From: Ancylobacter moscoviensis
Lineage (GTDB): Bacteria > Pseudomonadota > Alphaproteobacteria > Rhizobiales > Xanthobacteraceae
Assembly: GCF_007559435.1 (NCBI RefSeq)
Contig: NZ_VMBP01000002.1
Location: 372,001 to 436,000 of the forward strand
Reading direction: 5' to 3'
Length of the DNA: 64,000 nucleotides
Part shown: positions 7,363 through 64,000 of the stretch, piece after piece
Position numbering within the stretch: the stretch's first letter is position 1
Layout: each line of letters starts with the position of its first letter
Notes under the pieces: model-generated
Databases searched by the model: none
Seen by the model: only the letters and a program-made list of their open reading frames with translations
Told to the model about the DNA's origin: nothing
Made by a program: the position numbers and the translations under genes

Positions 7363-7515
7363 AAGGCAACGTTCCGAAATTTTTTATCGCTTACGCAGTG
7401 CAACAAAATTGTGCTAGTGGCCTTGGGCGCCAGCGATCCCGAGGCGGGCCGGGCCGTGTCGCATGACTTTGGGCGGAAGACCTGAAGCCGTTGAGGCCTA
7501 CTCGGAGACGGATGC

Positions 7516-8769: not shown

Positions 8770-8785
8770 GCAGGGAGCCGGCATC

Positions 8786-11959: not shown

Positions 11960-11987
11960 GGCGCGTCCGCCGTTTCGAGACTGGATC

Positions 11988-12017
11988 AACCCCGCCGCGT
12001 TCCGGCGGGGTTTTTCT
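11988..12017 (+). terminator. Rho-independent terminator of the RND operon
   Basis: CCCCGCCG (11990-11997), 5-base loop, CGGCGGGG (12003-12010), then TTTTTCTTT. A perfect 8-bp GC stem with a U tract, 29 bases after the pump stop codon. Confidence 0.93.
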
Positions 12018-12460
12018 TTGGGCGGTCCGCAGTCGGCTTGGGGGGGCGATTCCGCCGCTCCGGCCATGGCGCATCTTCACCCTCAGGTGCGATCCCGGGA
12101 CGTGAACCAGAGGGGCTCCAAGGTACCCCTCTCTCCGCGCACCGGGATGAAGTGCCGCCATTACCCTCCCGGAAGAAGGAGAGGTGGCCTGCGCACGAGA
12201 CCGAGGAGGGCTTCGCGGGTCCGTGGGGAGACAGGATGCAGAGCGGACGAGACCCTTCATCCAACCCCAACCCCAACTCTCTTCCCCCGCCGGAGAGAGG
12301 GAGTTCGGTCGCTTTCCCTGCGACGGTGAGCCAGCCTCCAGGTGCGGGCCGCACGAAGAGTCTTTGAGCCCGGCTTCGCGGGCATCTCGGGATGAGGCCC
12401 TGCCGTGGGGGCAAGGCGGGCGCCGCGACGACTCCCGCAGCCGAGGCCCGGCCATCTCCA
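12018..12460. other. Gene-free stretch between convergent units, with low-complexity intergenic sequence
   Basis: No convincing gene. The stretch is rich in CCAACCCCAACCCC, CTCTCTTCCCCC/GGAGAGAGGG complementary tracts (about 12259-12303) and short inverted segments (for example CCCGGGA near 12094 with its partner TCTCGGG near 12386). It resembles the mosaic intergenic repeats common between convergent genes in Hyphomicrobiales. Whether it is repeated elsewhere in the genome cannot be seen here. Confidence 0.4.
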
Positions 12461-12496
12461 CCCAAAACAAAAGCCCCCGCGCGAGGCGGGGGCTTT
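12461..12496 (-). terminator. Rho-independent terminator of the GPR-like gene
   Basis: On the minus strand AAAGCCCCCGC, loop CTCGC, GCGGGGGCTTT is followed by TGTTTTGGG. The 11-bp stem lies about 40 bases beyond the stop codon at 12534. Since the stem begins and ends in A/T runs it can also stop transcription from the other side. Confidence 0.92.
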
Positions 12497-12533
12497 CGGT
12501 ATTCGGAGCTTGCTCCGAGGCTTGCCGCGCCGC

Positions 12534-15500
12534 TCAGTCGAAGCGGCCGGCGGCGTGGGCGAGGAGGGTGTAGACCTTGCCCGTATCCGAGGTCAGATAG
12601 GTCTTGGTCATCGCCTGTCCGCGATCGTCGCGGGAGACCTGTTCCAGCAGCCGCTCGAACTCGGCGATGTAGCGATCCACCGTGTCGCGGAACTCGAGGT
12701 CGCGCCGGTACTTGCGGCGGATTTCCTCGAAGGTCTGCTGACCCTGCATGGTGTACAGGCGCCGGGTGAAGACGTTGCGCTCACCCTTCTTGTAGCGCTC
12801 CCACAGGTCCACGGCCGCCTCGTGGTCGATCATGCGGGCGATGTCGACCGAGAGCGAGTCGAGCGACTCGATGGTGTGGTGCACCGGGCGCTCCGGCTGG
12901 CTCGCGCGGTTGTCGTAGCCACGCGGCTGGGCGTTGCGCAGGGGCGGGTTCGCGGGCGCGCCGGCCGGCGGGGTGTCGCCGTCGGAAGCGCGGGCCAGCA
13001 GCTCGGAGAGCCAGCCGCCCTTTTCCGCGCCGGCGCCGCCGGCGGCACCGGCCGCATTGCCAGCGGAACCGCGCTCAGGCGCGGGCGGCTGGGGACGACG
13101 CGGGGCAGAGGTGCCCCCATTGCCGTTGCCGCCATTGCCGCTGGAGCGCTGGGGCTCGTTGTAAGCCTTGGCGCTGCCGGTGGACACCGGCCGGCTCGGC
13201 TCGCTGCGGGGAGCCGCAGCGCGGGGAACCGGGGCCGGGGCGGTCGGCGCAATCGGAGCGGCCGCGACGGCGGCAGGAGCCGCCGCGATCGGGGTCGCCG
13301 TCCGCATCCGCGTGCCGGTGTCGACGTCGAGCGTGCGACCGTGGCGCGAGACGATCTCGTTGAGCTCGGCCAGGGCCTTGATCTGCTCGGCGACGGTGCG
13401 GCGCATGGCCGAGGCGTTGGCCTCCGTCTCCTCCGGCAGCTCCATGATGCCGCGCTTGAGTTCCTCGCGCGTCGTCTCCAGCAGGCGCTGGATGTCGGTG
13501 ACGGAGGAACGCAGCGCCTGCGCCGCGCCGGCGAAGCCCTGATTGGCCTGCCGCATGAGGGTCTCCACCTCGCGCACGGCCTGCTCGTAGGTCTCGTGCA
13601 GCGACGCCGTGGTGCGCTCGCGCTCGCGTTCGGTCTTGGTGCGGATCTCCTCCTGCTGGCGCAGCACGGTTTCGGTCGAGTTGCTCGCCGTGTCGAGGAT
13701 CGACTTGGAGATCTCCGCGACGCGCTTCTCGGCGCGGCTGAAGGTGCCCTCCAGCGTGCTGGTGTACTGCGCGAGCCGGGTGTCGAGGTCGGCGGTGCGC
13801 GTGTTCACCTGCTCGGCGAGCGCGATCAGCGCCTCGTGACGGCCACCCAGGGTGTCGTCGAGGTTCTCATGCGCGGAGCCGAGGGCGGTCGCGACGTTGG
13901 TGATGATGCCGGCCTGTTCGCCGAACGCCTGGCTGAGCTTGGCCACGTCCTGCAGAACCTCGGTCGAGACCGAGCGCAGGTCGCGGATCTGCTCGTCCAT
14001 GCGGGTGGAGGCGTGCTGGCTGGCTTCTTCCACATTGGTAACGGTGGTGCGGAAGAGGTCGAGGCGCTCGGAGATCGTGCTCTCGATGGCCGAGAGGTTG
14101 GTGACCGAGCTGGCGAGCACGTCCTGCAGCTGGACGTTGACGTCGCCCAGCCGTTCCAGCAGGCCCGCCACGTCGCCCTGCAGGGCCTCGTTGGTCGCGG
14201 CGATCTCGGCCACGGCCGAGCGGCCGCTCTGCGCGATCGCGGTGATCAGGCCGCTGCCGCCGCCTTCCAGAGCCGCCGCGAACTCATCGGCGAGGCGGGC
14301 GAACTCGTTCGTCGCGACGCCGGTGGCCTGGCGGGCACTGTCGACGAGCTGGGCGCCGCGGCCGTCGAATTCCTCGGCGAGGCGGGACAGCTCGCTGGCC
14401 GCGATGCCGGTGGCCTGGCGGGCGCTGTCGAGGAGCTGGGCGCCGCGTCCGTCGAATTCCTCGGCGAGACGCGCGATCTCCTCGGCGGCGACGCCGGTGG
14501 CCTGACGGGCACTCTCGACGAGCTGGACGCCACGGCCGTCGAACTCCTCGGTGAGACGCGCGATCTCCTCGGAAGCGACGCCGGTGGCCTGGCGAGCGCT
14601 GTCGACGAGCTGGGCGCCGCGACCGTCGAATTCCTCGGCGAGGCGGGCGATCTCGCTGGCGGCGAGGCCGGTGGCCTGACGGGCGCTCTCGACGAGCTGC
14701 GCACCGCGCCCGTCGAACTCCTCGACGAGGCGGGACATCTCGCCGGCGGCGATGCCGGTGGCCTCGCGGGCGGTCTCGACGATCCGGGAGCCGCGGCCGT
14801 CGAACTCCTCGACGATGCGCGACAGCTCGGTCGCCGCCAGTTCGGTGGCCTGGCGGGCGCTGTCGACGAGCTGGGCGCCGCGGCCGTCGAACTCGGTGAG
14901 CAGCGTGTCGCCGGCGCGGGCTATCTCCTGCGTGACCTGTCCGCCGATGGCCTGCAGCGAGGACGACACCTCGCTGGTGATCTGCTGCAGCGAGGAGTTC
15001 ACGTCGCCGCCGACCGCGTGCAGGGAGGTCGTGACCTCGCCGCCGATGGCCTGGAGCGAGGAGGTGACCTCGTTGCTGATGGTCTGCAGCGAGCTGACGA
15101 CCTCGCCGCTCATCTGCATGAGCTGGTCGGCGCGGCCGGAGGTCGCGGTCTCGAAGGCCGAGACGATGGCTTCCGAGCGCGATTCCAGCGTGGTCAGCAG
15201 GTCCTCGCTGGCGCGCATGATGTCGGTCACCGCGCCGCTGCGGGTGGTGTCGAGCGCCTGCACGAGGCTGTCGCGATGGTCGTCGATGGCCGAGAGCAGC
15301 TCGGTGCTGGCGCGGGCGATCTCGCTCGTGATGCCGATGCTGCGGTCCTCGAGCGCCGAGAGCAGGCCGTTGCCGCGCTCGGAGACGAGGCGGGTGATCT
15401 CCTCGGTGCGGGTGTCGAACAGCGAGGTGACCTCGCTGGCGCGGTCCACCAGTGCCCGGCTGACATTGTCGACGAGCGTGGTGAGGCTGCCCTCGATCTC

Positions 15501-18500
15501 GCTCGCGTCGTTGCGGAGCTGGCCGGCAACGGCACCGATGCGCTGGCCGAGCAGGTCGGCCATGGCGGCGCCGCGCACCTCGACGGAGGTCGCCACGTTG
15601 TCGATGCGGCTGACGATCGTCTCCTCGAAGCGACCCACGCGGTCGTCGAGCGTGGTGGCGATCTCCTGCGCCCGGGCGGCGATGGTGCGGTCGGCCTGCT
15701 CGATGTGCTGGGAGAGCTGCTCGGTGACGGCGCCGGCGCGCTCGTCGAAGAAGCCGCTGAGCATCTCCAGCGAGTGGCTCATCGCCTCGTTGGCCTGACG
15801 CGCGCCCTCCGACAGGGTCTGCGCGAACTCGACGGTGCGCCCGCCGAGCGTCTCGTTGATCCCTTCCACGCCGCGGTCGAGGACGCCCTCGATATTGGCG
15901 ATGCGCATGTCGAGCGAGGCCGCGACCTGCTCGGCCTTGGCCGAAACCTGCTCGTCGAAGCCGGACAGGTTGGTGTCGATGGCGCGGGTGACCGCCTCGA
16001 CGCGGTCGGCGATGCGCTGGACCATGTCGACGCCGTGCGTCTGCAGCACGCTGTCGAACTGGCGCACGCCGTCCATGATCTGGCGTCCGAGCACGGCGCT
16101 GTCGCCGGCGATGCGGTCGGCGATCTCGCCGCCGCGCACGCTGACGAGGTCCTCGATGCCGCGCAGCTGCTGCTCGAGCTGCTCGCGGAAGCTGTCGCCG
16201 CGCGAGACGAGGTCGGTGGCGAGAAGGTCGGCGGCGGCGCGGAACTGGTCGGTCACGCGGGTGCCGTTCGCCACCAGGTTCTGCGCGGTCTCGGAGCCGA
16301 CCTGCACGAGCTGCTGGGAGAGGGTGTGGCCGCGATAGTCGATGTCCTGCGCCACGCGGCTGGCCGCGTCGGCGAGGGCGTCGTGGATGCCGGTGCCGGC
16401 CTGCGACAGCTCGTGTACGACACGCTGGCCGGTCTCGCCCAGCAGGCGCTCCAGCTCGGCGCCGCGCACGGCGACGGCGTCGTAGATGCGGTTGCCGGTG
16501 TCGGCGATGCGGTCGGCTAGGTCGTCGCCGCGCACGGTGATGGTGTCGGCGACCCGGCTGCCGGTCTCTTCCAGCTTGCGCACGACGTCGCCGCCGCGCA
16601 CCGAGAGGTCGAGCACCAGCGCGTCGCCAGTGCTCTTGAGGGTCTGGTTCACCTCGCTGGCGCGGATGGCGATCTCGTCGGCGAGACGGGTGCCGGTGTT
16701 GACCAGCGCGTCGGTGATCTCGTCGGAGCGTGCCGCCAGCGTGGAGCTGAGGTTGTAGGTGGTGGCGGCGAGCTTTTCGCCCATCTCCTCGGTGCGCTGG
16801 TTGACCACCTGCGAGAGCTCGGAGGCGGTGCGCAGCAGCCGGTCGCCGATCTCGTCGGTACGGTTGGCCAGCGTGTCGGTGAGGTTCTCGGTGACGCCGG
16901 TGAGCTGGCGGCTGATCTCGTCGGTGCGGACCGTGAGAGTGTCGCTCAGGTTCGAGGTGACGCCGGACAGACGCTGGCTGATCTCTTCCGTACGCGAGGT
17001 GAGCGTGTCGGTGAGGTTCTCGGTGGCGCCGGTGAGCTGGCGGCTGATTTCGTCTGTGCGGGTCGCGAGCGTGTCGGTCAGGTTCGAGGTGACGCCGGAC
17101 AGGCGCTGGCTGATGTCGTCGGTCTGCGCCGACAGCGTGGAAATCAGGTGCTCGCTGGCGTCGGAAAGGTTGGTGTTCACCTCGGAGCCGGTGGCCTGGA
17201 GGCGGTTGATCAGGTCGCCGCCCTTCTCGGACAGCGCCTCGATGATGGTGTCGCCGACGCGGCCGAGCGCCAGGGTGATGTGCTCGCCACGGTCGGAAAG
17301 CGTCGTCGCCACCCGGTCGGCGGCGAACATCACGTTCTCGCTGAGGCGGTCGCTGACGCCGCTCACTTCTTGCGCGAAGGCGTAGTGCGAGGCGGCGATG
17401 GTCTCGCGGATGTGCTCGGTCTGCGTGAGGATCGCCTCGCGCTCGACCTGCAGGCGCTCCACCAGCTGATGCATGCGCCGGTTGTTGTCGTCATAGGCCT
17501 GCGCGAGCGCGGCGATCTCGCTGCGCACGAAGGCTTCGGTCTCGCTCGCGCGGGTGACCGACTGCTCGAAATCGGCAAGCTGCGCCAGCGCCTCACCGGA
17601 AAGCGGCACGGGCGCGGCGGGGGCCACCGGGGCCGGGGCGGGCGCCTGCACGACGACCGGCGCCGGAGCCGGTTCGGCGAGGCGGATGGCGACCTGCGCC
17701 ATGGAGCGGGCGACGATGCGCATCTCCTGCATGCGGCGCACCATGGCGGCCAGCACGAAGAAGAAGACCGGGGGAATGACAAGCGCCGCGGCGCTGGCAA
17801 GGAAGGTCGGCGAGGCCAGCAGCGCGTTCAGGCCGCCTTCCGCGCCGCCGAACTGCGAATAGAGCAGGGCGGCGCCGGCGCCGAGCCAGGCGAGCGAGGC
17901 GAGGCCGGCCACGATGTAGGGCGCATTGGAGGGACGGCGCTGCAGCGCCGAGAGAAGCTGTCCGATGCTCTGCCGGTCGTCATTGGCGGCGCGGCGGCCC
18001 GAGGGGCCTTCGGTCGTGGAGATGTCGGCACGCGAGGCGTCGACGCGCGGCTCGCTGCGCGGCAGGGCCGCCGTCGCCGCGGCTCCAGCCGCTGCGGCGA
18101 CGAGCGCCGGCTCGATGGCGGGGGCGGCGATCTCCGCCGGCTCGTCGTCGCGCGCGGCGAAGTCGTCATGCGCGGCGAAATCCCGCACGGAGAATTCCGG
18201 CGTCGCCGATGCGCGCGGCGCGTACGCGTCCACTTCGGCTTCCGGAGCCTGCGCCTCGGAGGCGCGGGCGGCGAATTCCTCCGGTGCGAATTCGCTCGCG
18301 GGGAGCTCCTCCGGCGTCGAGAAACCATCGTCGGCGGTTTCCACGGCGAAATCCTGCGTGGACAGCTCTTCCGGGGTCAGCTCGAAGGTCGGCTCGACAC
18401 CCGTCCCGGAAAGCTCGGACGCCTCTTCATAGTCGGCGGTGGAGAGATCGAAGTCGTCGGCAAGCGTCGCCGTTTCCTCGGGGCTTGCGGCCGGGGCGTG

Positions 18501-53572: not shown

Positions 53573-54031
53573 ATGAATGAAATCGAACCCCTCCGGCGGC
53601 AGGTTACCGCCCAGCTTCTCAATGCCGGCCGTCAGTGGCGCCGCATCGCCGAGCGTGAGCTGGAAGTGCTTGGCATTTCGGAAGCGTGCGCCGCTCCGCT
53701 GGTGTGGACCGGGCGGCTGGGCGGTGGCGTCCGGCAGGTGACGCTCGCGGCCTATGTCGGGATCGAGGGGCCGTCGCTGGTGCGCCTGCTCGATCAGCTC
53801 GCGGCGTCCGATCTGATCGAGCGCCGGGACGACCCGACCGACCGCCGCGCCAAGACGATCTGGCTCACCCCGGCCGGGGAGCGGCTCGCCGCGCGCATCG
53901 AGGACCTGCTGAGCGGCGTGCGCGGTCAGGTTCTGGCTGAGGTGAGCCGTGACGATCTCGAAGTCACGTTGCGCGTGCTGAAGCTGTTCGATGCCGCGTC
54001 CGTCCGTTCGGCGGAGGAGGTGTCGGCGTGA
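53573..54031 (+). CDS. MarR-family transcriptional regulator of the efflux operon
   Basis: A 152-residue winged-helix repressor: HTH in VTLAAYVGIEGPSLVRLLDQLAASDLIERR, wing DPTDRRAKTIWLTPAGERLAARI. It begins the MarR-FUSC-DUF1656-HlyD operon and its stop overlaps the next start (GTGA). Such regulators usually bind a phenolic or other aromatic ligand and control their own operon; the palindromes at its promoter fit that. Confidence 0.9.
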   Translation: MNEIEPLRRQVTAQLLNAGRQWRRIAERELEVLGISEACAAPLVWTGRLGGGVRQVTLAAYVGIEGPSLVRLLDQLAASDLIERRDDPTDRRAKTIWLTPAGERLAARIEDLLSGVRGQVLAEVSRDDLEVTLRVLKLFDAASVRSAEEVSA

Positions 54032-56106
54032 CACTCCCTTCACGGCGGGACTGGCTCTTCTCCGGGAAAGCCTTCCTCGCATCCATGCTGGCGCTCTACA
54101 TCGCGCTGGCCTTCGACCTGCCGCGTCCCTACTGGGCGATGGCGGCGGTCTATGTCGTCGCCAATCCGCTTGCCGGCGCGACCAGCTCCAAGGGCCTTTA
54201 CCGCGCCCTCGGCACGCTGATCGGCGCCAGCGCCGCCGTGCTCTTCGTGCCGGTCTTCGTCAACGCGCCCGAGCTGCTCAGTCTCGTCGTCGCGCTGTGG
54301 ACCGGCTGCCTGCTCTACATCTCCATGCTCGACCGCACGCCGCGCAGCTACGTGTTCATGCTGGCCGGTTACAGCCTGCCGCTGATCGCCCTGCCGGAGG
54401 TCGGAACGCCGGCCAACATCTTCGACATCGCGCTGGCGCGCAGCGAGGAGATCATCATCGGCATCACCTGCGCCAGCGTGGTCGGCGCCGTGGTGTTCCC
54501 CACCAGCGTCGGCACGGCGCTTGCCGCCCGCATCGCCGGCTGGCTGGACGACGCCGCCTCCTGGGCCGGGGAGATCCTGCGCGGGGAGGGGGCGCTGCCG
54601 GTCACGCCGCTGCGCCGGCAGAAGCTCGCCGCCGACATCGCCGGCCTCGACCTGATCATCAGCCAGCTCTCCTACGATGCGGCGACGCGCGATGTCGTCG
54701 CCCATGCCCGCGAGCTGCGCGGGCGCCTGCTCATGTTGCTGCCGCTGCTTTCCTCGCTCGCCGACCGTCTCCATGCGCTGAAGGCGCAGGACGGGGAACT
54801 GCCGACCGATTTCGCGGCGGTGCTCGCCCGCGCCGCCGACTGGCTGGGACGAGGCCGCGACGCCGATCCGGCCGAGGCCGACGCGCTGATCGCGGCGATG
54901 AAGGCGCAGCGCCCGCAGGATCCCGGCGACTGGGACGAGCTCATCCGCGCCAGCGCCCTCGACCGGCTCGGCGAGATCGTCGCGCTGTGGAGCGACTGCC
55001 TGGTGCTGAAGGCCGACATTGAGCGCGGCCAGCATGCCGGCCCCTGGCGCCCGCGCTTCCGCCACCGCCGGGTGGTCGGCCCGGCCCGGCACTATGATTT
55101 CGGGCTGATGCTGTTCTCCGCCGCCTCCTGCGTGCTGGCGACGCTGGCCGCCTGCGCCTTCTGGATCGCCAGCGGCTGGACGAATGGCGGCACGGCGGTG
55201 ATGATGAGCGCCGTCGCCTGCTCCTTCTTCGCCGCCATGGACCGGCCGGCGCCCTTCATCCGCACCATGGCGGTCTGGAGCGGCGTCAGCCTCATCGTCT
55301 CGGCCGTCTACCTGTTCGGCATCCTGCCGCTGGTGCACGATTTCGAGATGCTGGTGCTGGTGTTCGCGCCACCCTTCCTGCTGCTCGGCCTGATGATCCC
55401 GCGCCCGCAGCTCACCATGCTGGGCATGCTGGTGGCGGTGAACACCGCCTCCTTCGTTGCCATGCAGAACCGCTACAGCGTCGATTTTGCCACCTTCGCC
55501 AATGAGGGCTTCGCGGCGCTGGCGGGGCTGACCTTCGCCTTCGCCTGGACGGTGGCGACCCGCCCCTTCGGGGTGGAGATCGCCGCCCGCCGGCTCGCGC
55601 GGGCCGGTTGGGCGGACCTCGCCGAGACCGCCGCCGGCCGCAACCGCGACGATCACGAGCGCCTCGCCGGGCGCATGCTGGACCGGCTGGGCCAGCTCGT
55701 GCCGCGCCTCGCCGCCATCGAGGACCGCGAGCTCGCCAGGGTGGACGGCTTCGCGGAGGTGCGGGTCGGCTTCAACATCGTCGAGCTGCAGAAGATGCGC
55801 CGCGGCATGGGCTTCCCGGCGCGCGCGGCCGTCGATTCCGTGCTGGCGGGCGTCGCCGCGCTCTACCGCGAGCGCGCCGCCCGCCAGAGCCTGACCGCCC
55901 CGCCGGACGCGCTGTGCGACGGCATCGACGCCGCGCTCCGCCTCGCCGCGCGCGAGGAGGGGGCGGAGGGGCGGCGCACGCTCGACGCGCTCGTCGGGCT
56001 GCGGCGTGTCTTCTTCCCCGGCACGCCCGGCCCGGCCGGCGGCTTCGCCCCGCAGGAGCGGTTCCAGCCCGGGCGGTTCCAACCCATGCCGATGGCGGCG
56101 GAATAG
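54028..56106 (+). CDS. FUSC-family aromatic acid/efflux transporter (AaeB-like)
   Basis: A 692-residue inner-membrane protein with two halves, each a bundle of about five or six membrane segments (about 20-165 and 355-515) separated by a soluble helical domain. N-terminal FLASMLALYIALAFDLPRPYWAMAAVYVVANPLAGATSSKGLYR is the family signature. In E. coli the relative AaeB exports p-hydroxybenzoate with the adaptor AaeA. GTG start, coupled to the MarR gene. Confidence 0.9.
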   Translation: MTLPSRRDWLFSGKAFLASMLALYIALAFDLPRPYWAMAAVYVVANPLAGATSSKGLYRALGTLIGASAAVLFVPVFVNAPELLSLVVALWTGCLLYISMLDRTPRSYVFMLAGYSLPLIALPEVGTPANIFDIALARSEEIIIGITCASVVGAVVFPTSVGTALAARIAGWLDDAASWAGEILRGEGALPVTPLRRQKLAADIAGLDLIISQLSYDAATRDVVAHARELRGRLLMLLPLLSSLADRLHALKAQDGELPTDFAAVLARAADWLGRGRDADPAEADALIAAMKAQRPQDPGDWDELIRASALDRLGEIVALWSDCLVLKADIERGQHAGPWRPRFRHRRVVGPARHYDFGLMLFSAASCVLATLAACAFWIASGWTNGGTAVMMSAVACSFFAAMDRPAPFIRTMAVWSGVSLIVSAVYLFGILPLVHDFEMLVLVFAPPFLLLGLMIPRPQLTMLGMLVAVNTASFVAMQNRYSVDFATFANEGFAALAGLTFAFAWTVATRPFGVEIAARRLARAGWADLAETAAGRNRDDHERLAGRMLDRLGQLVPRLAAIEDRELARVDGFAEVRVGFNIVELQKMRRGMGFPARAAVDSVLAGVAALYRERAARQSLTAPPDALCDGIDAALRLAAREEGAEGRRTLDALVGLRRVFFPGTPGPAGGFAPQERFQPGRFQPMPMAAE

Positions 56107-56110
56107 TCCG

Positions 56111-56320
56111 ATGTTCGGTGAGATCGATATTTACGGCGTCTACCTGCCGAACCTGCTGGCGCTGATGCTGGCGACGCTGCTGGTGAACCTCGCGGTGCGG
56201 CGGGTGCTCGCCTTTCTCGGCGCCTATGCCTTCGTCTGGCACCGCGGGCTGTTCGACGTCGCTCTCTATGTCGTCCTGCTGCAGGGCATGTCCCTGCTGT
56301 CCCAATGGTGGCTGTCATGA
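56111..56320 (+). CDS. DUF1656 small inner-membrane protein (AaeX-like)
   Basis: A 69-residue protein with two membrane helices (YLPNLLALMLATLLVNLAVRRVLAFLG; FDVALYVVLLQGMSLLSQW). It is the usual companion between the FUSC transporter and the HlyD adaptor (AaeX in E. coli). Four bases after the FUSC stop, with an ATGA overlap into the adaptor gene. Role not established. Confidence 0.88.
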   Translation: MFGEIDIYGVYLPNLLALMLATLLVNLAVRRVLAFLGAYAFVWHRGLFDVALYVVLLQGMSLLSQWWLS

Positions 56321-57180
56321 CCTTTTCCCTTCGCGGCATGCTCCGCATCGGCGTCACGCTGGCGGTGGCGCTGGCCGCGTTCGGCGCCGGGCGCGAGCTC
56401 TGGGCGCATTACATGGACGAGCCCTGGACGCGCGACGCCAAGGTGCGCGCCGACATCGTCGGCGTGGCGCCGGATGTTTCCGGCTTCGTCAGCGAGGTGC
56501 TGGTGCGCGACAATGAGAGCGTGAAGGCCGGCGACGTGCTCTTCCGCATCGACCGCGCCCGCTTCTCCATCGCGCTGGAGCAGGCGGAGGCGGCGGTCGA
56601 GGGCCGCAAGGCGACGCTCGAACAGGCCCGGCGCGACCGGACGCGCTATGAGCAGCTCAAGGATGTCGTCTCGCAGCAGAAGACCGAGCAGGCGCGCATG
56701 GAGGAAGCCGAGGCCGAGGCCGGCTACCGGCAGGCGCTCGCCGACCGCGACCTTGCCCGGCTGAACCTCGAGCGCTCGGAGGTGAAGGCGCCGGTGAACG
56801 GCACCATCACCAATTTCAACCTGCGGCCGGGGGACTATCTCACCGCCGGCAAGGCCGAGGTGGCGCTGGTCGACCGGGATTCGCTGCGCGTCGAGGGCTA
56901 TTTCGAGGAGACGAAGCTGGCGCGCATCCATGTCGGGGCGCCGGTGTCCATCCATCTGATGGGGCAGGCGACGCCGCTGGAAGGCCGGGTCGAGAGCATC
57001 GCGGCCGGCATCGAGGACCGCGAGCGTACCGTCGGCAACGGCCTGCTGGCCAACATCAATCCCACCTTCAGCTGGGTGCGCCTCGCCCAGCGCGTGCCGG
57101 TGCGCATCGCGCTCGGTACGATCCCCGAGGGCGTCACCCTCGTCGCCGGCCTCACGGCGACGGTGTCGGTCGGCCCGTAG
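56317..57180 (+). CDS. HlyD-family periplasmic adaptor (AaeA-like)
   Basis: A 287-residue membrane-fusion protein. One N-terminal membrane anchor (MLRIGVTLAVALAAFGAG), the lipoyl-like half VSGFVSEVLVRDNESVKAGDVLFRID, a helical hairpin (about 88-145), the second half APVNGTITNFNLRPGDYL, and a beta-barrel RVEGYFEETKLARIHVGAPV. Start at 56317 chosen by the ATGA overlap. It completes a tripartite aromatic-compound exporter with the FUSC and DUF1656 proteins. Confidence 0.9.
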   Translation: MTFSLRGMLRIGVTLAVALAAFGAGRELWAHYMDEPWTRDAKVRADIVGVAPDVSGFVSEVLVRDNESVKAGDVLFRIDRARFSIALEQAEAAVEGRKATLEQARRDRTRYEQLKDVVSQQKTEQARMEEAEAEAGYRQALADRDLARLNLERSEVKAPVNGTITNFNLRPGDYLTAGKAEVALVDRDSLRVEGYFEETKLARIHVGAPVSIHLMGQATPLEGRVESIAAGIEDRERTVGNGLLANINPTFSWVRLAQRVPVRIALGTIPEGVTLVAGLTATVSVGP

Positions 57181-57362: not shown

Positions 57363-57379
57363 TGTTATAACATATGACG
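57363..57379. promoter_or_regulatory. GntR operator upstream of gntR
   Basis: TGTTATA-ACA-TATGACG. Identical at 15 of 17 positions to the perfect site 58170-58186 and containing the palindrome TGTTATAACA. Lies 46-62 bases before the gntR start, indicating autoregulation. Confidence 0.75.
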
Positions 57380-57424
57380 AGGTGGCCGCTGCCCGCGGAC
57401 CCTCAGCCGAGGAAAGCGCGCCCC

Positions 57425-58111
57425 ATGAACCTTGAACCACTCGTTCAGGAGCCCTTGCACGAGCGGGCCTATACGGCGCTGCGCGGGGCGTTGCGCTCCG
57501 GGCGTTTCAAGCCCGGTCAGGCCATGACCATACGTGGCCTCGGCAAGGATCTCGGCATCTCCGCGACGCCGGTGCGCGAGGCGTTGCAGCGCCTCATCGC
57601 GGCGCAGGCGCTGCGGCTCCAGCCCAACCGCACCATCATCGTGCCGGTGCTGACGCGCAGCCGTTTCCAGGAAATCACCAAGGTCCGCGTGCGGCTGGAA
57701 GGGCTTGCCGCGCAGGAGGCGACGCCCCGGCTCACGAGTCGCGACATTGCCGAGCTCGAGGCGCTTTCGGCCGCCATGACGGCCGATATCGCCCAGAAGC
57801 GCTTCACGGATTATCTCGCCAACAATGAGCGCTTCCACTTCCTCATCTACGGTGCGTCCGGCATGGAATTCCTGTGGGAACTCATTGACTTGTGCTGGTT
57901 GCAGACCGGCCCATGGCTGAACGCGCTGGCGAGTGAGGGCCGCTTCCACGCCATCGCCAATACGGTGCATGACGAGATCATCACGCTGGCCTCGGCGGGC
58001 GACGCCGACGGCGTGCGCGAGGCGGTGCAGCGGGACATTCTCGAAGCGGCGCGCCTGCTGACCCGTTTTCTCGGCGACGACGACAAGGTGCCGATGGCCG
58101 AGGCCGTCTGA
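57425..58111 (+). CDS. GntR-family (FadR/FCD subfamily) transcriptional regulator
   Basis: A 228-residue regulator: wHTH about 10-70 (ERAYTALRGALRSGRFKPGQAMTIRGLGKDLGISATPVREALQRL), then an FCD ligand domain (about 80-215) with the metal-binding histidines in NERFHFLIYGAS and HDEIITLASAGDADGVREAV. Start at 57425 (MNLEPLVQEPLHERAY). Nearly identical palindromes precede this gene and the transporter 98 bases downstream, so it very probably controls the polyol uptake-dehydratase operon and itself. FCD regulators usually sense an organic acid or sugar-derived pathway intermediate. Confidence 0.92.
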   Translation: MNLEPLVQEPLHERAYTALRGALRSGRFKPGQAMTIRGLGKDLGISATPVREALQRLIAAQALRLQPNRTIIVPVLTRSRFQEITKVRVRLEGLAAQEATPRLTSRDIAELEALSAAMTADIAQKRFTDYLANNERFHFLIYGASGMEFLWELIDLCWLQTGPWLNALASEGRFHAIANTVHDEIITLASAGDADGVREAVQRDILEAARLLTRFLGDDDKVPMAEAV

Positions 58112-58169
58112 GGAATTCGAGGCAGCGGACATCGAAATTTCGCTTGCCAGCCGAAAATACGGCTTCTAG

Positions 58170-58186
58170 TGTTATAACATATAACA
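58170..58186. promoter_or_regulatory. GntR operator upstream of the ABC transporter operon
   Basis: TGTTATA-ACA-TATAACA: a perfect inverted repeat with a 3-base centre, 22 bases before the first transporter gene. Its close copy stands before gntR. Binding here would block transcription or loading at the operon promoter. Confidence 0.82.
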
Positions 58187-58208
58187 AGCTAAGCAGCGGA
58201 GGCGGACA

Positions 58209-59033
58209 GTGATCGGCGAGTCGCGCTGGGTGCAATGGGCATCCCATCTCATTCTGGGTGGGGCTTCGGCGGTGATCCTGCTGCCGCTGCTGTGGGTTCT
58301 GCGCACCTCCTTCGCCGACAAGGTGGTCGCCTATCAGATCCCGCCGGACCTGTTCTTCGCCCCCACGCTGGACAATTACCGCGAGGTGCTGCTGCGCTTC
58401 GATTTCGGCAGCTTCTTCCTGAACAGTCTGATCGTCGCGATGGCGACCACGCTGATCGCCCTCATGCTTGGCGCGCTCGCGGCCTACGCGATCGATCGCT
58501 TCCGCACCGGCGGGCCGGTCATGCCGCTCGCCATTCTGGCGACGCAGATGATGCCGCCGATCGTGCTGGTGATCCCGTTCTTCCTCATCTTCAAGCAGGT
58601 GGGGCTCGCCGACACCCATGTCGGCCTGATCATCACCTATCTGACCTTCAACCTGCCCTATGTCGTCTGGCTGATGATGAGCTTCTTCAAGCGCGTGCCG
58701 CGCGAGCTCGACGAGGCGGCGTTGATCGACGGGGCGGGGCCCTTCGGCGTGTTCTGGCGCATCGTCCTGCCGGCGGCGCTGCCCGGCATCGGCGCGGCCG
58801 GCGTGCTCTCCTTCGTGCTGTGCTGGAACGAGTTCCTCTTCGCGCTGATGCTGACGGGGCAGCAGACCAAGACCCTCCCGGTCGCCATCTCCAGCCTCGT
58901 CACCCAGCAGGGCACGGCCATCGGCGCGGTCTGCGCTTCCACCATGCTGGCGATCGCGCCCATGGTCCTCGTCTATTTCGCCATCCGCAAACTTCTGGTC
59001 GCCGGTCTCAGCCTCGGCGCGGTGAAGGGCTGA
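58209..59033 (+). CDS. Carbohydrate ABC transporter permease (MalG-like)
   Basis: A 274-residue inner-membrane permease with six hydrophobic segments and the EAA loop EAALIDGAGPFGVFWRIVLP that docks on the ATPase. GTG start with GGAGG upstream. MalG-like members pair with a MalF-like permease, here the one at 60427. The gene order MalG-binding protein-MalF differs from the usual binding protein-MalF-MalG. No ATPase is in the window, so it is either just downstream or shared. Confidence 0.92.
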   Translation: MIGESRWVQWASHLILGGASAVILLPLLWVLRTSFADKVVAYQIPPDLFFAPTLDNYREVLLRFDFGSFFLNSLIVAMATTLIALMLGALAAYAIDRFRTGGPVMPLAILATQMMPPIVLVIPFFLIFKQVGLADTHVGLIITYLTFNLPYVVWLMMSFFKRVPRELDEAALIDGAGPFGVFWRIVLPAALPGIGAAGVLSFVLCWNEFLFALMLTGQQTKTLPVAISSLVTQQGTAIGAVCASTMLAIAPMVLVYFAIRKLLVAGLSLGAVKG

Positions 59034-59089
59034 GCAACAAGCCGGGCGGCAAACGCCCGCAGTCGAACCATCCAGAAAAGGGAACTGTC

Positions 59090-60388
59090 ATGACACGCGT
59101 GAAATTCGGCGGCTGTGCCGCCACGATCGCTCTCATGCTCGCCGCCGGGCCGGCCCTTGCCGCCAGCGACGTCTGCAAGGGCTCCGACATCAACATCCTG
59201 ATGGAGACAGTGCCGGACACCGAGGCGCTGAGCAGCCTGAAGGGCGAGTTCGAGAAGGAATACGGCGCTAAGGTCAACATCGAGGCGGTCAACTACTCGC
59301 TGATGCACGAGAAGCTGGTGCCGAGCCTCACGGCGCCGACGTCGAGCTACGACGTGCTCGTCGTCGACAGCTACTGGGTCGGCGAGTTCAAGACCGCCGG
59401 CTGGATCAGGGATCTCGACGAGCTGATCGCCCGCGACAAGATCGACACCGGCATCTATTTCCCCGCGCTGATGGCGCTGAACGGCAAGGTGCAGGGCAAG
59501 ACCTACATGCTGCCCTTCTGGCAGTACGCCATGGGCATCCTGTACCGGAAGGACATCGTCGAGGATCCGGCCTTCCAGGCGGCCTACAAGGCCGAGTTCA
59601 AGCGCGACTGGCGCCTGCCGACCACGCTGGAGGAGTTCTCCGAGGTGGTGAAGTGGGCCGGCAAGTACAAGGACATGCACGGCATCGCCATGGCCGCCCA
59701 GCGCGCCGACCCGGTGGTGATGGAGGCGACCAACTACCTCTTCGCCGAGGGCGGCGACTTCTACGACCGCACCACCTGGAAACCGACCATGGACAGCCCC
59801 GAGGCGACCAAGGCGGTGACGGTCTATGCGGACCTTCTGAAGACCGCCGCGCAGCCCGGCGCGCTCGGCGCGAACTTCGACGATGTCGCCAATACGCTCA
59901 AGCAGGGCAAGGCGATCTTCGCGATCAGCTACCTCTTCCTGTTCCCCACACTGGAAGACCCCAAGGACTCGACCGTGGTCGGCAAGATGGGCTTCGCGCC
60001 TGTGCCGGGCAAGGACAGCTTCCTCGGCGCCTGGGGCTGGGCCGTGCCGACCAACGCCAAGAACCCGGACTGCTCGTGGGAGTTCCTGAAGTGGGTCGAA
60101 TCCAAGGACGTCGCCTACAAGCGCGCCCTTGCCGGTGGCCAGCCGACCCAGATGTGGATCTACGAGGACGCCGAGTTCCTGAAGAAGTGGCCGGCCATGT
60201 CGCAGGTGGGTACCGCCCTCGAACATTCGAAGGGCCTGCCGATCATGTCCCGCTCGACCCAGCTCGTGGAGACCTTCGCCGAGGTCATGGGCTCGGTGCT
60301 TGCCAACGGCGTCGCTCCGGCCACCGCGCTGGAGGAATCGCAGGACAAGTTCGGTCGCCTCGTGAAGGGCGATCCGCTCCTTAAGTGA
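59090..60388 (+). CDS. Extracellular (periplasmic) solute-binding protein, family 1
   Basis: A 432-residue binding protein. Start at 59090 (MTRVKFGGCAATIALMLAAG) follows AAAAGGGAA. The signal peptide is cleaved after PALA-A (about residue 24). The mature protein has the family 1 pattern ETVPDTEALSSLKGEFEKEYGAKVNIE, YDVLVVDSYWVGEFKTAGWIRDLDEL, and QGKAIFAISYLFLFPTLEDP. It delivers a sugar or polyol to the two permeases on either side of it. The ligand cannot be read from the sequence. Confidence 0.93.
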   Translation: MTRVKFGGCAATIALMLAAGPALAASDVCKGSDINILMETVPDTEALSSLKGEFEKEYGAKVNIEAVNYSLMHEKLVPSLTAPTSSYDVLVVDSYWVGEFKTAGWIRDLDELIARDKIDTGIYFPALMALNGKVQGKTYMLPFWQYAMGILYRKDIVEDPAFQAAYKAEFKRDWRLPTTLEEFSEVVKWAGKYKDMHGIAMAAQRADPVVMEATNYLFAEGGDFYDRTTWKPTMDSPEATKAVTVYADLLKTAAQPGALGANFDDVANTLKQGKAIFAISYLFLFPTLEDPKDSTVVGKMGFAPVPGKDSFLGAWGWAVPTNAKNPDCSWEFLKWVESKDVAYKRALAGGQPTQMWIYEDAEFLKKWPAMSQVGTALEHSKGLPIMSRSTQLVETFAEVMGSVLANGVAPATALEESQDKFGRLVKGDPLLK

Positions 60389-60426
60389 CCTGACCCTCGT
60401 ACCGCAGCTTTCAGGGGCGCGATCCC

Positions 60427-61320
60427 ATGACCCTCGTCGCAGCGACCGCCGGCATCACCCCCCGCCGGCACCGCAATCTCGCGCAGTACATCTTCGTGGC
60501 GCCAACCGTGATCGTGTTGGCGCTGGTCGTGGCCGCGCCCCTGATCTACTCGATCTATCTGAGCTTTCAGGAATACATCATCACCTACGGCATGGGCGAC
60601 TTTGCCGGCCTCGGCAACTACATCGCCGTCCTGTCGGACGACTTCGCCAATGTCTCGTGGGTGACGCTCAAGCTCACGGCGCTGTGCGTGGCGATCGAGT
60701 TCATTGTCGCCTTCGGCCTCGCTTTGCTGCTCAACCAGCCGCATCTGCCCGGCCGCTCCTTCTATCTCCTCGTGCTGATGATCCCGGTGCTGATGACGCC
60801 GGTGGCCGTCGCGCTGATGTTCCGGCTGATGTTCAATCCAACTCTGGGCATCGTGAACTGGCTGATCGGGCTCGCCGGCATCCCACCGCAGGGCTGGTTC
60901 GGCGATCCCAACCTCGCGCTCGGCACCGTCGTGTTCGTCGATGTCTGGCACGAGACGTCGCTGATGCTGCTCATGCTCTATGCCGGCCTCAAGGCCATGC
61001 CGAGCGAGCCGGTGGAGGCCGCGCGCATCGACGGCGCCAGCCGCCTGCAGATCCTGCTCTACGTCACCTGGCCGCTGATGAAGCCGGTGATCATGGTGAC
61101 GCTGCTCATCCGCATGATCGCGGCGCTGAAGAGCTACGACCTGATCTACATGCTGACCCAGGGCGGGCCGGGCAAGGCGACGGAGACCATCTCCTTCTAC
61201 GCCTACCGCCTCGGCTTCCGCTTCCTCGACATCGGCCAGGCGGCCGCGGTCTCCTTCATCCTGCTGATCGTCGTCACCATCCTGACGCTGGTCCTGCTGC
61301 GGACCATGCGGGAGGCGTGA
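60427..61320 (+). CDS. Carbohydrate ABC transporter permease (MalF-like)
   Basis: A 297-residue permease with six membrane segments; N-terminal RHRNLAQYIFVAPTVIVLALVVAAPLIYSIYLSF, EAA loop EAARIDGASRLQILLYVTWP. Partner of the MalG-like protein. Its TGA is followed after one base by the ATG of the diol dehydratase gene, tying uptake directly to catabolism. Confidence 0.93.
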   Translation: MTLVAATAGITPRRHRNLAQYIFVAPTVIVLALVVAAPLIYSIYLSFQEYIITYGMGDFAGLGNYIAVLSDDFANVSWVTLKLTALCVAIEFIVAFGLALLLNQPHLPGRSFYLLVLMIPVLMTPVAVALMFRLMFNPTLGIVNWLIGLAGIPPQGWFGDPNLALGTVVFVDVWHETSLMLLMLYAGLKAMPSEPVEAARIDGASRLQILLYVTWPLMKPVIMVTLLIRMIAALKSYDLIYMLTQGGPGKATETISFYAYRLGFRFLDIGQAAAVSFILLIVVTILTLVLLRTMREA

Positions 61321-61321
61321 G

Positions 61322-63610
61322 ATGAGCGAGGCTCCCAACAGTTCCAACCGCTGGCGCCGCTTCGGCGAGTGGGATTCCCGCCCGCTGCGCCAGGACCTGT
61401 TCGCGGCGGAAAACCCGGAGGCCGGCTTCTCGGTGTTCCGCAGCCCCCACGACCCCGCCCCCTCGCTCACCGTCGAGGGGGGCCGGGTGACAGGGATGGA
61501 CGGCAAGGCGGCCGGCGACTTCGACATCATCGACGCCTTCATCGCCGCCCATCACATCGATCCCGCCATGGCCGCCGTCGCCATGGCGATGGACCCGGGC
61601 GAGATCGCCCGCAAGCTGGTGGACATCAACGTTCCCCGGCAGGAACTGGAGGCGCTCGCCCGCGGCCTGACGCCGGCGCGCCTCGCCGAAGTCGTGGGCC
61701 GGTTGTCGGCGCTCGAGATCGCCTTCGCCTATTCGAAGATGCGCCAGCGCCAGACCCCCGGCAACCAGGCCCACGTCACCAACGCCAAGGACGACCCGCT
61801 CCAGCTCGCCGCCGATTCCGCCACCGCCGTGGCGCTCGGCTTCGACGAGATCGAGACCACCATGCGCGTCGCCTCGAACGGCTGGGCCAACGCGCTCGCC
61901 TGCACGGTGGGCGCGGCGGTCGGGCGGGGAGGGGTGTTGTTCCAGTGCTCCATCGAGGAGGCGGAGGAGCTGCAGATCGGCCTCGCGGGCCTCGCCTCCT
62001 ATGCCGAGACCGTCTCGGTCTACGGTACAGAGCGCGCCTTCATCGACGGCGACGACACACCCTGGTCCAAGGCGCTGCTCACCGCCGCCTATGCCTCGCG
62101 CGGCATCAAGGCGCGCTGCACCTCGGGCGCGGCGGCGGAACTGCTGATGGGTTTCCACGAGCAGCGCTCGCTGCTCTATCTCGAAGCGCGCTGCCTGTGT
62201 CTGCAGCGGGCGATGGGCGTGCAGGGCACGCAGAACGGCGGCATCGACGGTGCCCCGCTCACCGCCTCCATGGCCGGCGGCGTGCGCGAACTGATGGCGG
62301 AGAACCTCATCGCCGTCTGGCTCGGCCTCGAATGCGCCTCGGGCAACGACACCCGCACCAGCGAGTCGGAGATCCGCGTCGGCGCCAAGATCACGCCCTA
62401 TCTGCTCGCCGGCTCGGACCTCATCTGCTCGGGCTTCGGCTCGGTGAAGAAGTACGACAATTCCTTCAACGCCTCGCTCTTCAACGGCGAGGAGATCGAG
62501 GACTATCTCGTCCTCCAGCGCGACTTTGAGACCGATGGCGGGCTCACCCCCGTCGACGAGGACCAGGTGCTCGGCCTGCGCGTGCGCGCCGTCGAGGCGC
62601 TGGCGGCGGTGATGGACGAGCTGGGCCTTGGCAAGGTCCCGCGCGAGCGGATCATGTCGGTGGTCTTCGCCTCCGGCTCGCAGGAGACCGAGAGCTTCAC
62701 CGCCGGCGAGGTCACGCCGATCAGCGCGGCAATCAAGGCGCGCGGCATCACCGCCGTGGACGTGGTGCGCGCGCTGGCGGCGCGCGGCTATACCGAGGAG
62801 GCGGAGAACCTTCTCCTCATGCTGCGCCAGCGCATCTCCGGCGATTATCTCCAGACCTCCGCCATCGTGCGCGACGGACGCGTCATCAGCGCCGTCAACG
62901 ATCCCAACGAATATCACGGCCCGGGCACCGGCTACCGCATGCCGGAGGCGCGCTGGCAGGCGGTGCAGGGCATCCGCAACGTGCTGACGCGTGACCGCGT
63001 GCTGGCGGTGGAGGATATCGGCGAGGCCGGCGAGTCCGACTGGCTGCTCCCCAGGGGGGAGGCGGTGCGGGGCACGGCGCCGCACGAGGTGGTCATCGGC
63101 GTCAGTCCCGGCTTCGGCCGCCAGCTTCACCGCACCACGGCCGGCCATAGGCTGGAGGAGGTCGTCGCGGCCCTCGTCGGCGGTATCGAGGCGGGCGGCG
63201 GCACGGCGCGCATCGTGCGCATGCTGCACACGGCGGACACGTCTTTTCTCGGCCTCGCTGCCGCGCGGCTCTCGGGCTCGGGCTACGGCATCGGCATCCA
63301 GGCCAAGGGCACCACGGTGCTGCATCAGGCCGACCGCATGCCGCACCTCAATGTCGAGCTGTTCTCCAATGCCCCGCTGACCGGCCTCGATCATTACCGG
63401 GCGCTCGGCCGCAACGCGGCCCTCTACACCCATGGCGAGGCGCCCGAGCCGGTGGTCGTGCCGGTGCAGGGCGAGGCTCTGGGCGCCCGCTTCCATGTGC
63501 GCGTGGCGCTGCTTTATGCCATCGAGACCGCCCTGACCGACCCCGCCGCCACGCCGGTCGAGCTCGACTATCGGCCTCCGGCCGGCGCCGACAGGAGTGA
63601 CCGCCCATGA
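61322..63610 (+). CDS. Coenzyme B12-dependent diol/polyol dehydratase, fused large and medium subunits
   Basis: A 762-residue fusion. Residues 1 to about 565 are the large (PduC-like) subunit: substrate and metal residues of the Klebsiella enzyme align without gaps at +8 (H151 in QAHVTN, E178 in GFDEIETT, E229 in GTERAF, Q304 in QGTQNG, D343 in ASGNDT, S370 in LICSGF). Residues about 575-750 are the medium (PduD-like) subunit: VVIGVSPGFG, LSGSGYGIGIQAKGTTVLHQ. The enzyme dehydrates a vicinal diol to an aldehyde by a radical mechanism. The two residues near substrate C3 in the Klebsiella enzyme, S301 and Q336, are D309 and T344 here, so substrate specificity is probably different. No shell protein for a microcompartment is in the window. 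Confidence 0.93.
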   Translation: MSEAPNSSNRWRRFGEWDSRPLRQDLFAAENPEAGFSVFRSPHDPAPSLTVEGGRVTGMDGKAAGDFDIIDAFIAAHHIDPAMAAVAMAMDPGEIARKLVDINVPRQELEALARGLTPARLAEVVGRLSALEIAFAYSKMRQRQTPGNQAHVTNAKDDPLQLAADSATAVALGFDEIETTMRVASNGWANALACTVGAAVGRGGVLFQCSIEEAEELQIGLAGLASYAETVSVYGTERAFIDGDDTPWSKALLTAAYASRGIKARCTSGAAAELLMGFHEQRSLLYLEARCLCLQRAMGVQGTQNGGIDGAPLTASMAGGVRELMAENLIAVWLGLECASGNDTRTSESEIRVGAKITPYLLAGSDLICSGFGSVKKYDNSFNASLFNGEEIEDYLVLQRDFETDGGLTPVDEDQVLGLRVRAVEALAAVMDELGLGKVPRERIMSVVFASGSQETESFTAGEVTPISAAIKARGITAVDVVRALAARGYTEEAENLLLMLRQRISGDYLQTSAIVRDGRVISAVNDPNEYHGPGTGYRMPEARWQAVQGIRNVLTRDRVLAVEDIGEAGESDWLLPRGEAVRGTAPHEVVIGVSPGFGRQLHRTTAGHRLEEVVAALVGGIEAGGGTARIVRMLHTADTSFLGLAAARLSGSGYGIGIQAKGTTVLHQADRMPHLNVELFSNAPLTGLDHYRALGRNAALYTHGEAPEPVVVPVQGEALGARFHVRVALLYAIETALTDPAATPVELDYRPPAGADRSDRP

Positions 63611-64000
63611 GCGACGTCGATCTCTATCCCGTCGCCGAGAAGGCGCCGGAACAGGTGAGGACGCCGACCGGCAAGCCGCTCTCCGCGCTGACGCTGGAAG
63701 CGGTCATGTCCGGCGAGGTGGACGCGCGGGACGTGGCGATCACGCCCGAGGCGCTTTTGCTTCAGGCGCGGATCGCCCGTGCCGCCGGGAGGGTGACGCT
63801 GGCGGAGAATTTCGAGCGCGCGGCGGATCTCGTGCGCGTTCCGCAGGACCTCATCCTCGACACCTACGAGCTGCTGCGGCCGGGCCGCGCGCGCGACGCG
63901 CAGCAGCTTCTCGACCGGGCGGCGCAGCTGCGCCGCGACTATGGCGCCGAGCGCGTCGCCGCCCTGATCGAGGAAGCCGCGGCTGTCTACACGCGCCGCG
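63607..64000 (+). CDS. Diol dehydratase small subunit (PduE-like), cut by the window end
   Basis: 131 residues are visible, starting MSDVDLYPVAEKAPEQVRTPTGKPLSALTL; the ATG overlaps the upstream stop (ATGA). Later PGRARDAQQLLDRAAQLRRDYGAERVAALIEEAAAVY is typical of the small (gamma) subunit that caps the B12 active site. Usual length is about 140-175, so the stop lies soon after base 64000. Downstream a reactivase, an ATPase or aldehyde enzymes may follow but cannot be seen. Confidence 0.92.
   Translation, partial: MSDVDLYPVAEKAPEQVRTPTGKPLSALTLEAVMSGEVDARDVAITPEALLLQARIARAAGRVTLAENFERAADLVRVPQDLILDTYELLRPGRARDAQQLLDRAAQLRRDYGAERVAALIEEAAAVYTRR

What the first reader, a model, noticed from the sequence alone, without database searches (positions are those of the whole stretch)
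57363..64000. Sugar-type ABC importer fused operonically to a B12 diol dehydratase with a remodelled substrate pocket
Seen: GntR gene, two permeases and a binding protein, then a fused large/medium and a small B12 dehydratase subunit, all overlapping or nearly so. Established: in Klebsiella diol dehydratase Ser301 and Gln336 lie beside C3 of the substrate and altering them widens the range to longer diols. Here, at gapless +8 alignment, they are Asp309 and Thr344 while all catalytic residues are kept. Inference: the system imports and dehydrates a polyol other than glycerol or propanediol, with substrate delivered by an ABC importer and not a facilitator, and no shell proteins are visible. I compared with a remembered Klebsiella sequence.
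Basis: partly seen in the sequence, partly recalled or inferred. Interest (0 to 1): 0.72.

Follow-up and report, generated by a model that had tools for sequence, protein, structure and literature searches.

The report
Importer-linked B12 dehydratase, altered pocket
A soil-type bacterium carries one switchable gene set that probably imports a small unknown compound and breaks it down with a vitamin-B12 enzyme whose substrate pocket differs from that of the well-known glycerol and propanediol enzymes, and neighbouring genes hint that the compound carries an amine group.

Summary
GntR regulator, two permeases, binding protein, fused large+medium dehydratase and small subunit lie in one tight row; beyond 64000 the row continues with the ABC ATPase, an SDR, an APH-family kinase and a class III PLP enzyme closest to ethanolamine-phosphate phospho-lyase. 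It is no pdu set: no shell gene and no known reactivase were found in the genome. Ser301 to Asp309 and Gln336 to Thr344 hold, but Asp309 is no peculiarity of this operon: it is in 86 of 86 fused alphaproteobacterial rows, including those near microcompartment genes, while position 344 varies. The full operon was seen in 10 loci, each with the operator core TGTTATAACA before the first permease; the other 118 loci then held lack it. Kinase and PLP genes accompany the dehydratase across the clade (35 of 88 loci with both; 0.13 expected), often with amine-type transporters. Best reading: catabolism of a hydroxylated amine (amino-diol or amino-polyol), Asp309 facing its C3 group. The substrate is inferred; a neutral polyol or glycerol remains possible. 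Fusion and missing reactivase were already in print.

The parts
57363..57375 (+). operator copy 1 (TGTTATAACATAT; palindromic core TGTTATAACA) before the GntR gene; binding is inferred
   Evidence: only two sites in the 4.18 Mb genome at up to 1 mismatch, both in this operon
57425..58111 (+). GntR/FCD-family regulator
   Evidence: PF00392, PF07729; scanned with the longer start at 57374
58170..58182 (+). operator copy 2, before the first permease
   Evidence: the core is found here in 10 of 10 operons of this type
58209..59033 (+). ABC permease (MalG-like)
   Evidence: PF00528
59090..60388 (+). extracellular solute-binding protein; nearest solved relatives are named as sugar or sorbitol binders
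   Evidence: PF01547; 1eu8, 5iai, 4rya
60427..61320 (+). ABC permease (MalF-like)
   Evidence: PF00528
61322..63610 (+). fused large+medium subunit of a coenzyme-B12 diol/glycerol-type dehydratase; Asp309, Gly310, Ala311, Thr344, Arg345 in the substrate-pocket segments
63607..64000 (+). small dehydratase subunit (continues to 64023). Beyond the window the row goes on: UgpC-type ATPase 64040-65125, SDR 65122-65901, APH-family kinase 65931-66989, ETNPPL-type PLP enzyme 66992-68308 (L002 coordinate + 55000)

Best explanation
An inducible catabolic operon. SHOWN by sequence: one co-directional gene row headed by a GntR-family regulator, with a repeated palindromic site; a complete CUT1-type ABC importer; a B12 dehydratase with the catalytic residues compared and a clade-specific pocket (Asp309); an SDR; an APH-family kinase with HxDxxxxN and DFG-like motifs (motifs recalled); a class III PLP enzyme of the ethanolamine-phosphate phospho-lyase branch. 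INFERRED: without inducer the GntR protein sits on TGTTATAACA; the inducer is the imported compound or a product. The compound is a small hydroxylated amine, most likely an amino-diol or amino-polyol. The dehydratase takes the 1,2-diol end: AdoCbl radical chemistry moves the C2 hydroxyl to C1 and loses water, giving an aldehyde. Asp309, where Ser301 can face the substrate's C3 group in the Klebsiella enzyme, holds a cationic or strongly polar C3 group. Kinase and phospho-lyase take the amino-alcohol end: O-phosphorylation, then loss of phosphate and ammonia to a carbonyl; the SDR interconverts alcohol and carbonyl. The order of these steps is unknown.
For: Gene row and domains. PLP enzyme: 388.6 bits to the bacterial phospholyase 5g4i, 375.6 to ethanolamine-phosphate phospho-lyase 6tor, next best chain 185.1. 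Kinase and PLP enzyme match opposite ends of the same NCBIfam models PRK06148/PRK06149, below their cut-offs. Same operon in 10 loci, window included; operator core before the first permease in these 10 and in none of the other 118 loci held then, many of them short or duplicates. Asp309, Gly310, Ala311, Gly373 each 86 of 86 rows, while L102, Halomarina L014 and the fused L020 have S, C, I, S. Clade-wide company: APH 46 of 88 loci, class III PLP 45 of 88, both 35 of 88 against 2.0, 5.5 and 0.13 expected from this genome's gene density; PotD-like binding protein or amino-acid permease in 51 of 88, 48 of them with strong scores; the PotD-like proteins have W276-x-E278 on PotD's W-x-D (role of the PotD residue recalled). 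The same genome has a second locus with PotD-like importer, SDR, APH kinase and a PLP enzyme about 54% identical to members of this operon's PLP cluster, and no dehydratase match.
Against: No activity, ligand or expression data. This operon's own importer is of the sugar/polyol kind. 32 of 88 loci have neither kinase nor PLP gene in view: some are cut by contig ends or poor gene calling, others, such as L023-L026 with 18-19 called genes, truly lack them nearby. In L023-L026 the dehydratase lies beside a glycerol uptake and catabolism operon (GlpK and GlpD named in L023), and in L056 genes of the same transporter and GlpD clusters lie three genes away; L012, L039, L041, L042 have a xylulokinase-like gene nearby. 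These favour polyols or glycerol. The PLP enzyme of a microcompartment locus (L048) is closer to putrescine aminotransferase (172 bits) than to phospho-lyases. Counts are not independent (related and near-identical rows kept), HMM hits include weak ones, and the background comes from one genome. No usable pocket model: pLDDT 57 overall and under 50 across 299-408.
Confidence: 0.45

Rival explanations
1. One reading: a neutral polyol larger than glycerol (tetritol, pentitol or deoxy-polyol) is imported and dehydrated; Asp309 hydrogen-bonds its extra hydroxyls; kinase and PLP enzyme act on an amine made later in the route.
For: Binding protein nearest to chains named sugar or sorbitol binders; a convergent operon with a pentulose-kinase-family gene lies directly downstream (TIGR01315 665.7 bits); xylulokinase-like gene near the dehydratase in L012, L039, L041, L042.
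Against: Does not explain why the same Asp pocket occurs with amine-type transporters in 51 of 88 loci, nor why the operon itself encodes an amino-alcohol-type kinase and phospho-lyase-type enzyme.
Confidence: 0.25
2. It is a glycerol or propanediol dehydratase in all but detail; the Asp/Thr pocket and the subunit fusion reduce suicide inactivation, so that no reactivase is needed.
For: No PF08841 reactivase in 9 of 9 genomes with PF02286 and none in 88 loci with an HMM built from three reactivases. In the Klebsiella diol dehydratase S301A and Q336A lower inactivation by glycerol (kinact 1.15 to 0.22 and 0.081 per min), and glycerol's C3-OH points to Ser301 in the inactivation-prone pose (PMC7674605, passages). 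Glycerol operon beside the gene in L023-L026. A 2016 paper already proposed that fused forms may lack reactivation or use another route (PMC4777399, passages).
Against: G148 also lacks a PF08841 match, and its fused L020 keeps Ser, so Asp is not required for going without a reactivase; the alanine variants in that table lose glycerol kcat/Km (0.14 to 0.08 and 0.02), and the double variant loses the gain; glycerol does not explain kinase, phospho-lyase and amine transporters.
Confidence: 0.2
3. Two separate jobs under one switch: the dehydratase handles a glycerol-like part and kinase plus phospho-lyase an ethanolamine-like part of one imported conjugate.
For: The ATPase is of the UgpC family; PLP enzyme of the ethanolamine-phosphate phospho-lyase branch.
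Against: No phosphodiesterase or other splitting enzyme among the operon's genes; the binding protein matches UgpB/UspB only at E about 0.007-0.01.
Confidence: 0.1

Closest known systems
AdoCbl-dependent diol/glycerol dehydratase (PduCDE, DhaB; solved chains 1dio, 1iwp, 9vi2)
   Same: All three subunit families; about 46-52% identity to the non-alphaproteobacterial plasmid hits listed with the large subunit; catalytic residues compared are kept
   Different: Large and medium subunits fused; Ser-Cys-Ile 301-303 replaced by Asp-Gly-Ala and Gln336 by Thr; no reactivase, shell or pdu genes found
Naturally fused dhaB1-dhaB2 of Mesorhizobium, Hyphomicrobium and Mycobacterium (PMC4777399, passages; Liu et al. 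2010, cited there, not read)
   Same: Same fusion, no reactivase genes, 'slightly different' active site; our Mesorhizobium and Hyphomicrobium rows are in the Asp clade
   Different: Treated there as glycerol dehydratase; no importer, kinase or phospho-lyase link in the passages seen
RMM2 locus type of the Rhodococcus and Mycobacterium microcompartments (PMC4207490, passages)
   Same: Phosphotransferase, aminotransferase, short-chain dehydrogenase, GntR and dehydratase homologues in one locus
   Different: No shell gene found in the window's genome, an ABC importer in place of an amino-acid permease, an ETNPPL-type PLP enzyme; the RMM2 dehydratase itself was not fetched, so its pocket is not compared
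Ethanolamine-phosphate phospho-lyase branch of class III PLP enzymes (5g4i, 6tor)
   Same: Sequence match over nearly the whole length including the GKPMGNGHP segment
   Different: Activity untested; the substrate may be another amino-alcohol phosphate

Membership tests
AdoCbl-dependent diol/glycerol dehydratase | Large, medium and small subunit domains | tested here: met
   PF02286 E 1.1e-208, PF02288 8.9e-21, PF02287 7.3e-42
AdoCbl-dependent diol/glycerol dehydratase | Catalytic residues Q141, H143, E170, E221, Q296, D335, S362 | tested here: met
   same residue in window, L102 and 86 of 86 rows
AdoCbl-dependent diol/glycerol dehydratase | Ser301/Gln336 beside C3 as in the characterised enzymes compared | tested here: not met
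   Asp309, Thr344
AdoCbl-dependent diol/glycerol dehydratase | Partner reactivase (PF08841) | tested here: not met
   none in own genome, 0 of 9 genomes; PF02288 has only the one fused match; EutA PF06277 also absent
AdoCbl-dependent diol/glycerol dehydratase | Dehydrates 1,2-propanediol or glycerol with AdoCbl | not testable with these tools
   needs enzyme assay; two PF01923 adenosyltransferase matches exist in the genome
pdu/dha operon | Reactivase, 1,3-propanediol dehydrogenase or shell genes alongside | tested here: not met
RMM2-type amino-alcohol microcompartment | Kinase, PLP enzyme, SDR and dehydratase in one locus | tested here: met
RMM2-type amino-alcohol microcompartment | Shell proteins (PF00936) | tested here: not met
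   none in own genome, present in 6 of the 9 genomes searched
Ethanolamine-phosphate phospho-lyase family | Closer to 5g4i/6tor than to any other solved class III chain | tested here: met
Ethanolamine-phosphate phospho-lyase family | Releases phosphate and ammonia from an amino-alcohol phosphate | not testable with these tools
   needs assay

The most novel reading that the evidence does not exclude
The alphaproteobacterial Asp-type dehydratases are a separate B12 enzyme: a dehydratase for amino-diols or amino-polyols that works without a classical reactivase. It would explain the unexplained dehydratase genes of amino-alcohol (RMM2-type) microcompartment loci, and in the window's lineage the enzyme stands outside any compartment, behind a dedicated importer and switch.
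Probability: 0.3. Interest if true: 0.72.

Novelty: new variant of a known kind. Interest (0 to 1): 0.5.

Why it matters
Diol dehydratases are textbook radical enzymes known for a few substrates and for inactivating themselves without a reactivase. A widespread clade with a charged residue where the third carbon binds, and with no known reactivase found, suggests a new substrate class and possibly a self-sparing radical enzyme. It also offers a testable substrate for the diol dehydratase of RMM2-type microcompartments, whose use a 2014 survey left open (PMC4207490, passages). Each gene of the operon is small enough to test alone.

Tried and rejected
Rejected: 'pocket remodelled together with the importer' (Asp309 is clade-wide); 'standard pdu set'; 'chance ORFs' (E-values, conservation in 10 operons); an RNA switch (no Rfam match at gathering threshold in L002). 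Led nowhere: structure models of the kinase (pLDDT 43.6) and of the fused dehydratase (pLDDT 57.1) were too poor, so no fold search was run and no pocket model made; phmmer with the kinase found one weak chain (2ppq, E 0.0042); a scan of viral contigs gave one relative, not used; a plasmid search with a microcompartment-type PLP enzyme listed no actinobacterial row among the 15 shown of 1968, so I did not get to a mycobacterial dehydratase; literature searches for the substrate brought nothing to the point. The lists of searches (several capped, e.g. 30 of 92, 12 of 34, 15 of 87, 25 of 191 shown) held no title on an Asp-type pocket or on amino-diol dehydration; the library is open-licence only, and Liu et al. 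2010, which described the fused forms' active site, was not read.

Near-identical rows (e.g. L084/L085) were kept. From the neighbourhood count: L001, L003-L011 (short or duplicate stretches), L014, L018, L020, L102, L103. The search for related loci reported 159 relatives and kept 80; only those 80 were studied. Hits are any match at E 1e-15 to HMMs built from the clusters themselves, so some weak ones count (class III in L038, L058, L080; kinase in L088; transporter in L031, L052, L093). The gene caller was home-made and failed on L017, L045 and L052.
Full report
What is there. The window is G000:C6:372001-436000 of a 4.18 Mb genome in 13 contigs, 99.33% complete. Read with the continuation beyond 64000 (L002; window = L002 + 55000) the operon is: GntR/FCD regulator, MalG-like permease, solute-binding protein, MalF-like permease, fused large+medium dehydratase, small subunit, UgpC-type ATPase, SDR, APH-family kinase, class III PLP enzyme. 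After the first permease the gaps run from 56 bases down to 4-base overlaps. A convergent operon with a pentulose-kinase-family gene follows. The nearest dehydratase relative is from Ancylobacter koreensis (L022, 91% in the trimmed tree alignment).

The switch. TGTTATAACATAT stands before the regulator (57363) and before the first permease (58170); no match in 100 shuffles of the window at up to one mismatch, and these are the only two sites in the genome at that limit. The core TGTTATAACA was then counted in the 128 loci held: L002 (the window's own stretch), L012, L013, L022, L027, L028, L037, L039, L040 and L042 have it, 118 do not, many of those being short or duplicate stretches. These ten are the loci in which the full importer-dehydratase-kinase operon was seen, and in each one copy lies before the first permease. 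That the GntR protein binds it is inferred.

The pocket. D309 is in 86 of 86 fused alphaproteobacterial rows, as are G310, A311 and G373; R345 in 82 of 86 (K 3, A 1). Position 344 is A 59, T 20, C 4, Q 1, V 1, S 1. Klebsiella L102, Halomarina L014 and the fused but distant L020 keep Ser at 301. The ten importer operons have Thr344; the fourteen rows from loci with shell genes have Asp309 too, thirteen with Ala344 and one with Gln. So Asp309 marks the clade, not the importer. In the Klebsiella enzyme the C3-OH of glycerol points to Ser301 in one pose and to Asp335 in the other, and alanine changes at 301 and 336 alter efficiency and inactivation (PMC7674605, passages). An acid at 301 therefore most likely meets the group on C3; that this is an ammonium group is inference.

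The company. 88 loci (80 named relatives kept of 159; the window's L002; two plasmid and five genome-scan loci) were scored with HMMs built from the gene clusters: APH kinase 46, class III PLP 45, both 35, SDR 69, PotD-like binding protein or amino-acid permease 51 (48 with strong scores), isochorismatase-like hydrolase 40, shell proteins 14, reactivase 0, the window's kind of binding protein 10. From this genome's 5 APH and 14 class III genes one expects 2.0, 5.5 and 0.13 loci for kinase, PLP and both. The loci are related, so this measures association and is no significance test. In the tree all ten importer-type rows lie in a 25-row set (support 95) and 12 of 13 labelled shell-gene rows in another set of 63 (support 84); the importer label needs 4 changes, so the order of gain and loss is open.

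Evidence on the substrate. For an amine: the operon's PLP enzyme scores about twice as high against phospho-lyases as against any other solved class III chain; kinase and PLP enzyme match opposite ends of one NCBIfam model, PRK06148; relatives use amine-type transporters; the same genome holds a second locus with PotD-like importer, SDR, kinase and PLP gene and no dehydratase match. Against: the operon's own binding protein is nearest to sugar and sorbitol binders; a glycerol operon lies beside the gene in L023-L026, related clusters near it in L056, and xylulokinase-like genes near it in four loci; the PLP enzyme of the microcompartment locus tested is of another branch. A compound with both a diol and an amine reconciles most of this, but no tool result names it.

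What is known. The natural fusion, the missing reactivase and a slightly different active site were reported for Mesorhizobium, Hyphomicrobium and Mycobacterium and read as glycerol dehydratase (PMC4777399, passages; PMC7674605, passage). RMM2 microcompartment loci join an amino-2-propanol-type gene set with dehydratase genes, which the authors think unused or part of a bifunctional compartment (PMC4207490, passages); a later study predicts amino-2-propanol catabolism for the related locus in steps that name no B12 enzyme (PMC6620236, passages). The 2021 catalogue of microcompartments has no mention of aminotransferase, phosphotransferase or diol dehydratase in its main text (PMC8217296, term search). 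New here, as far as these searches go: Asp309 as an invariant of the alphaproteobacterial clade, its association with kinase and PLP genes, and the operator-bearing importer operon in ten loci.

Verdict. Solid: operon, repeated site, pocket residues, no shell and no known reactivase found. Likely: kinase and PLP enzyme act on an amino alcohol. Open: the substrate, the order of steps, the role of Asp309.

Noticed in passing
L126 (G000:C8:61001-79000), 7262-16754: Second locus in the same genome: PotD-like ABC importer, SDR, APH kinase and a PLP enzyme of this operon's cluster type, without a dehydratase match; a DeoR-like and a hydrolase-like gene between them are named by eye only.
   Followed up: partly
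L023-L026 and L056: In L023-L026 the dehydratase lies beside a glycerol-type importer, GlpK and GlpD operon; in L056 genes of the same transporter and GlpD clusters lie three genes away.
   Followed up: partly
L017, L030, L048, L056, L063, L065, L066, L068, L070, L073, L074, L078, L087, L090: 14 alphaproteobacterial loci with shell proteins near the fused dehydratase, 11 of them also with an EutE-like aldehyde dehydrogenase; they look like RMM-type microcompartments.
   Followed up: partly
L020 (G148:C11:50001-70000), around 7920: Another fused large+medium dehydratase that keeps Ser301, in a genome without a PF08841 match; fusion is not confined to the Asp clade.
   Followed up: no
L012, 9774-10989: The Shinella plasmid's binding protein gene is listed only in its second part although the match begins earlier; it may be interrupted, or the gene table incomplete.
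   Followed up: no
genus of G000: PF02286 is present in 10 of 30 genomes of the genus, the window's own included: an accessory gene.
   Followed up: no
L002 13340-18999, minus strand: Convergent polyol-type operon: pentulose-kinase-family gene, SDR, zinc alcohol dehydrogenase, UgpC-like ATPase, regulator with a sugar-binding domain.
   Followed up: no
window 53573-57180: MarR regulator, FUSC-type transporter and HlyD-like protein just upstream, an efflux set that looks unrelated.
   Followed up: no
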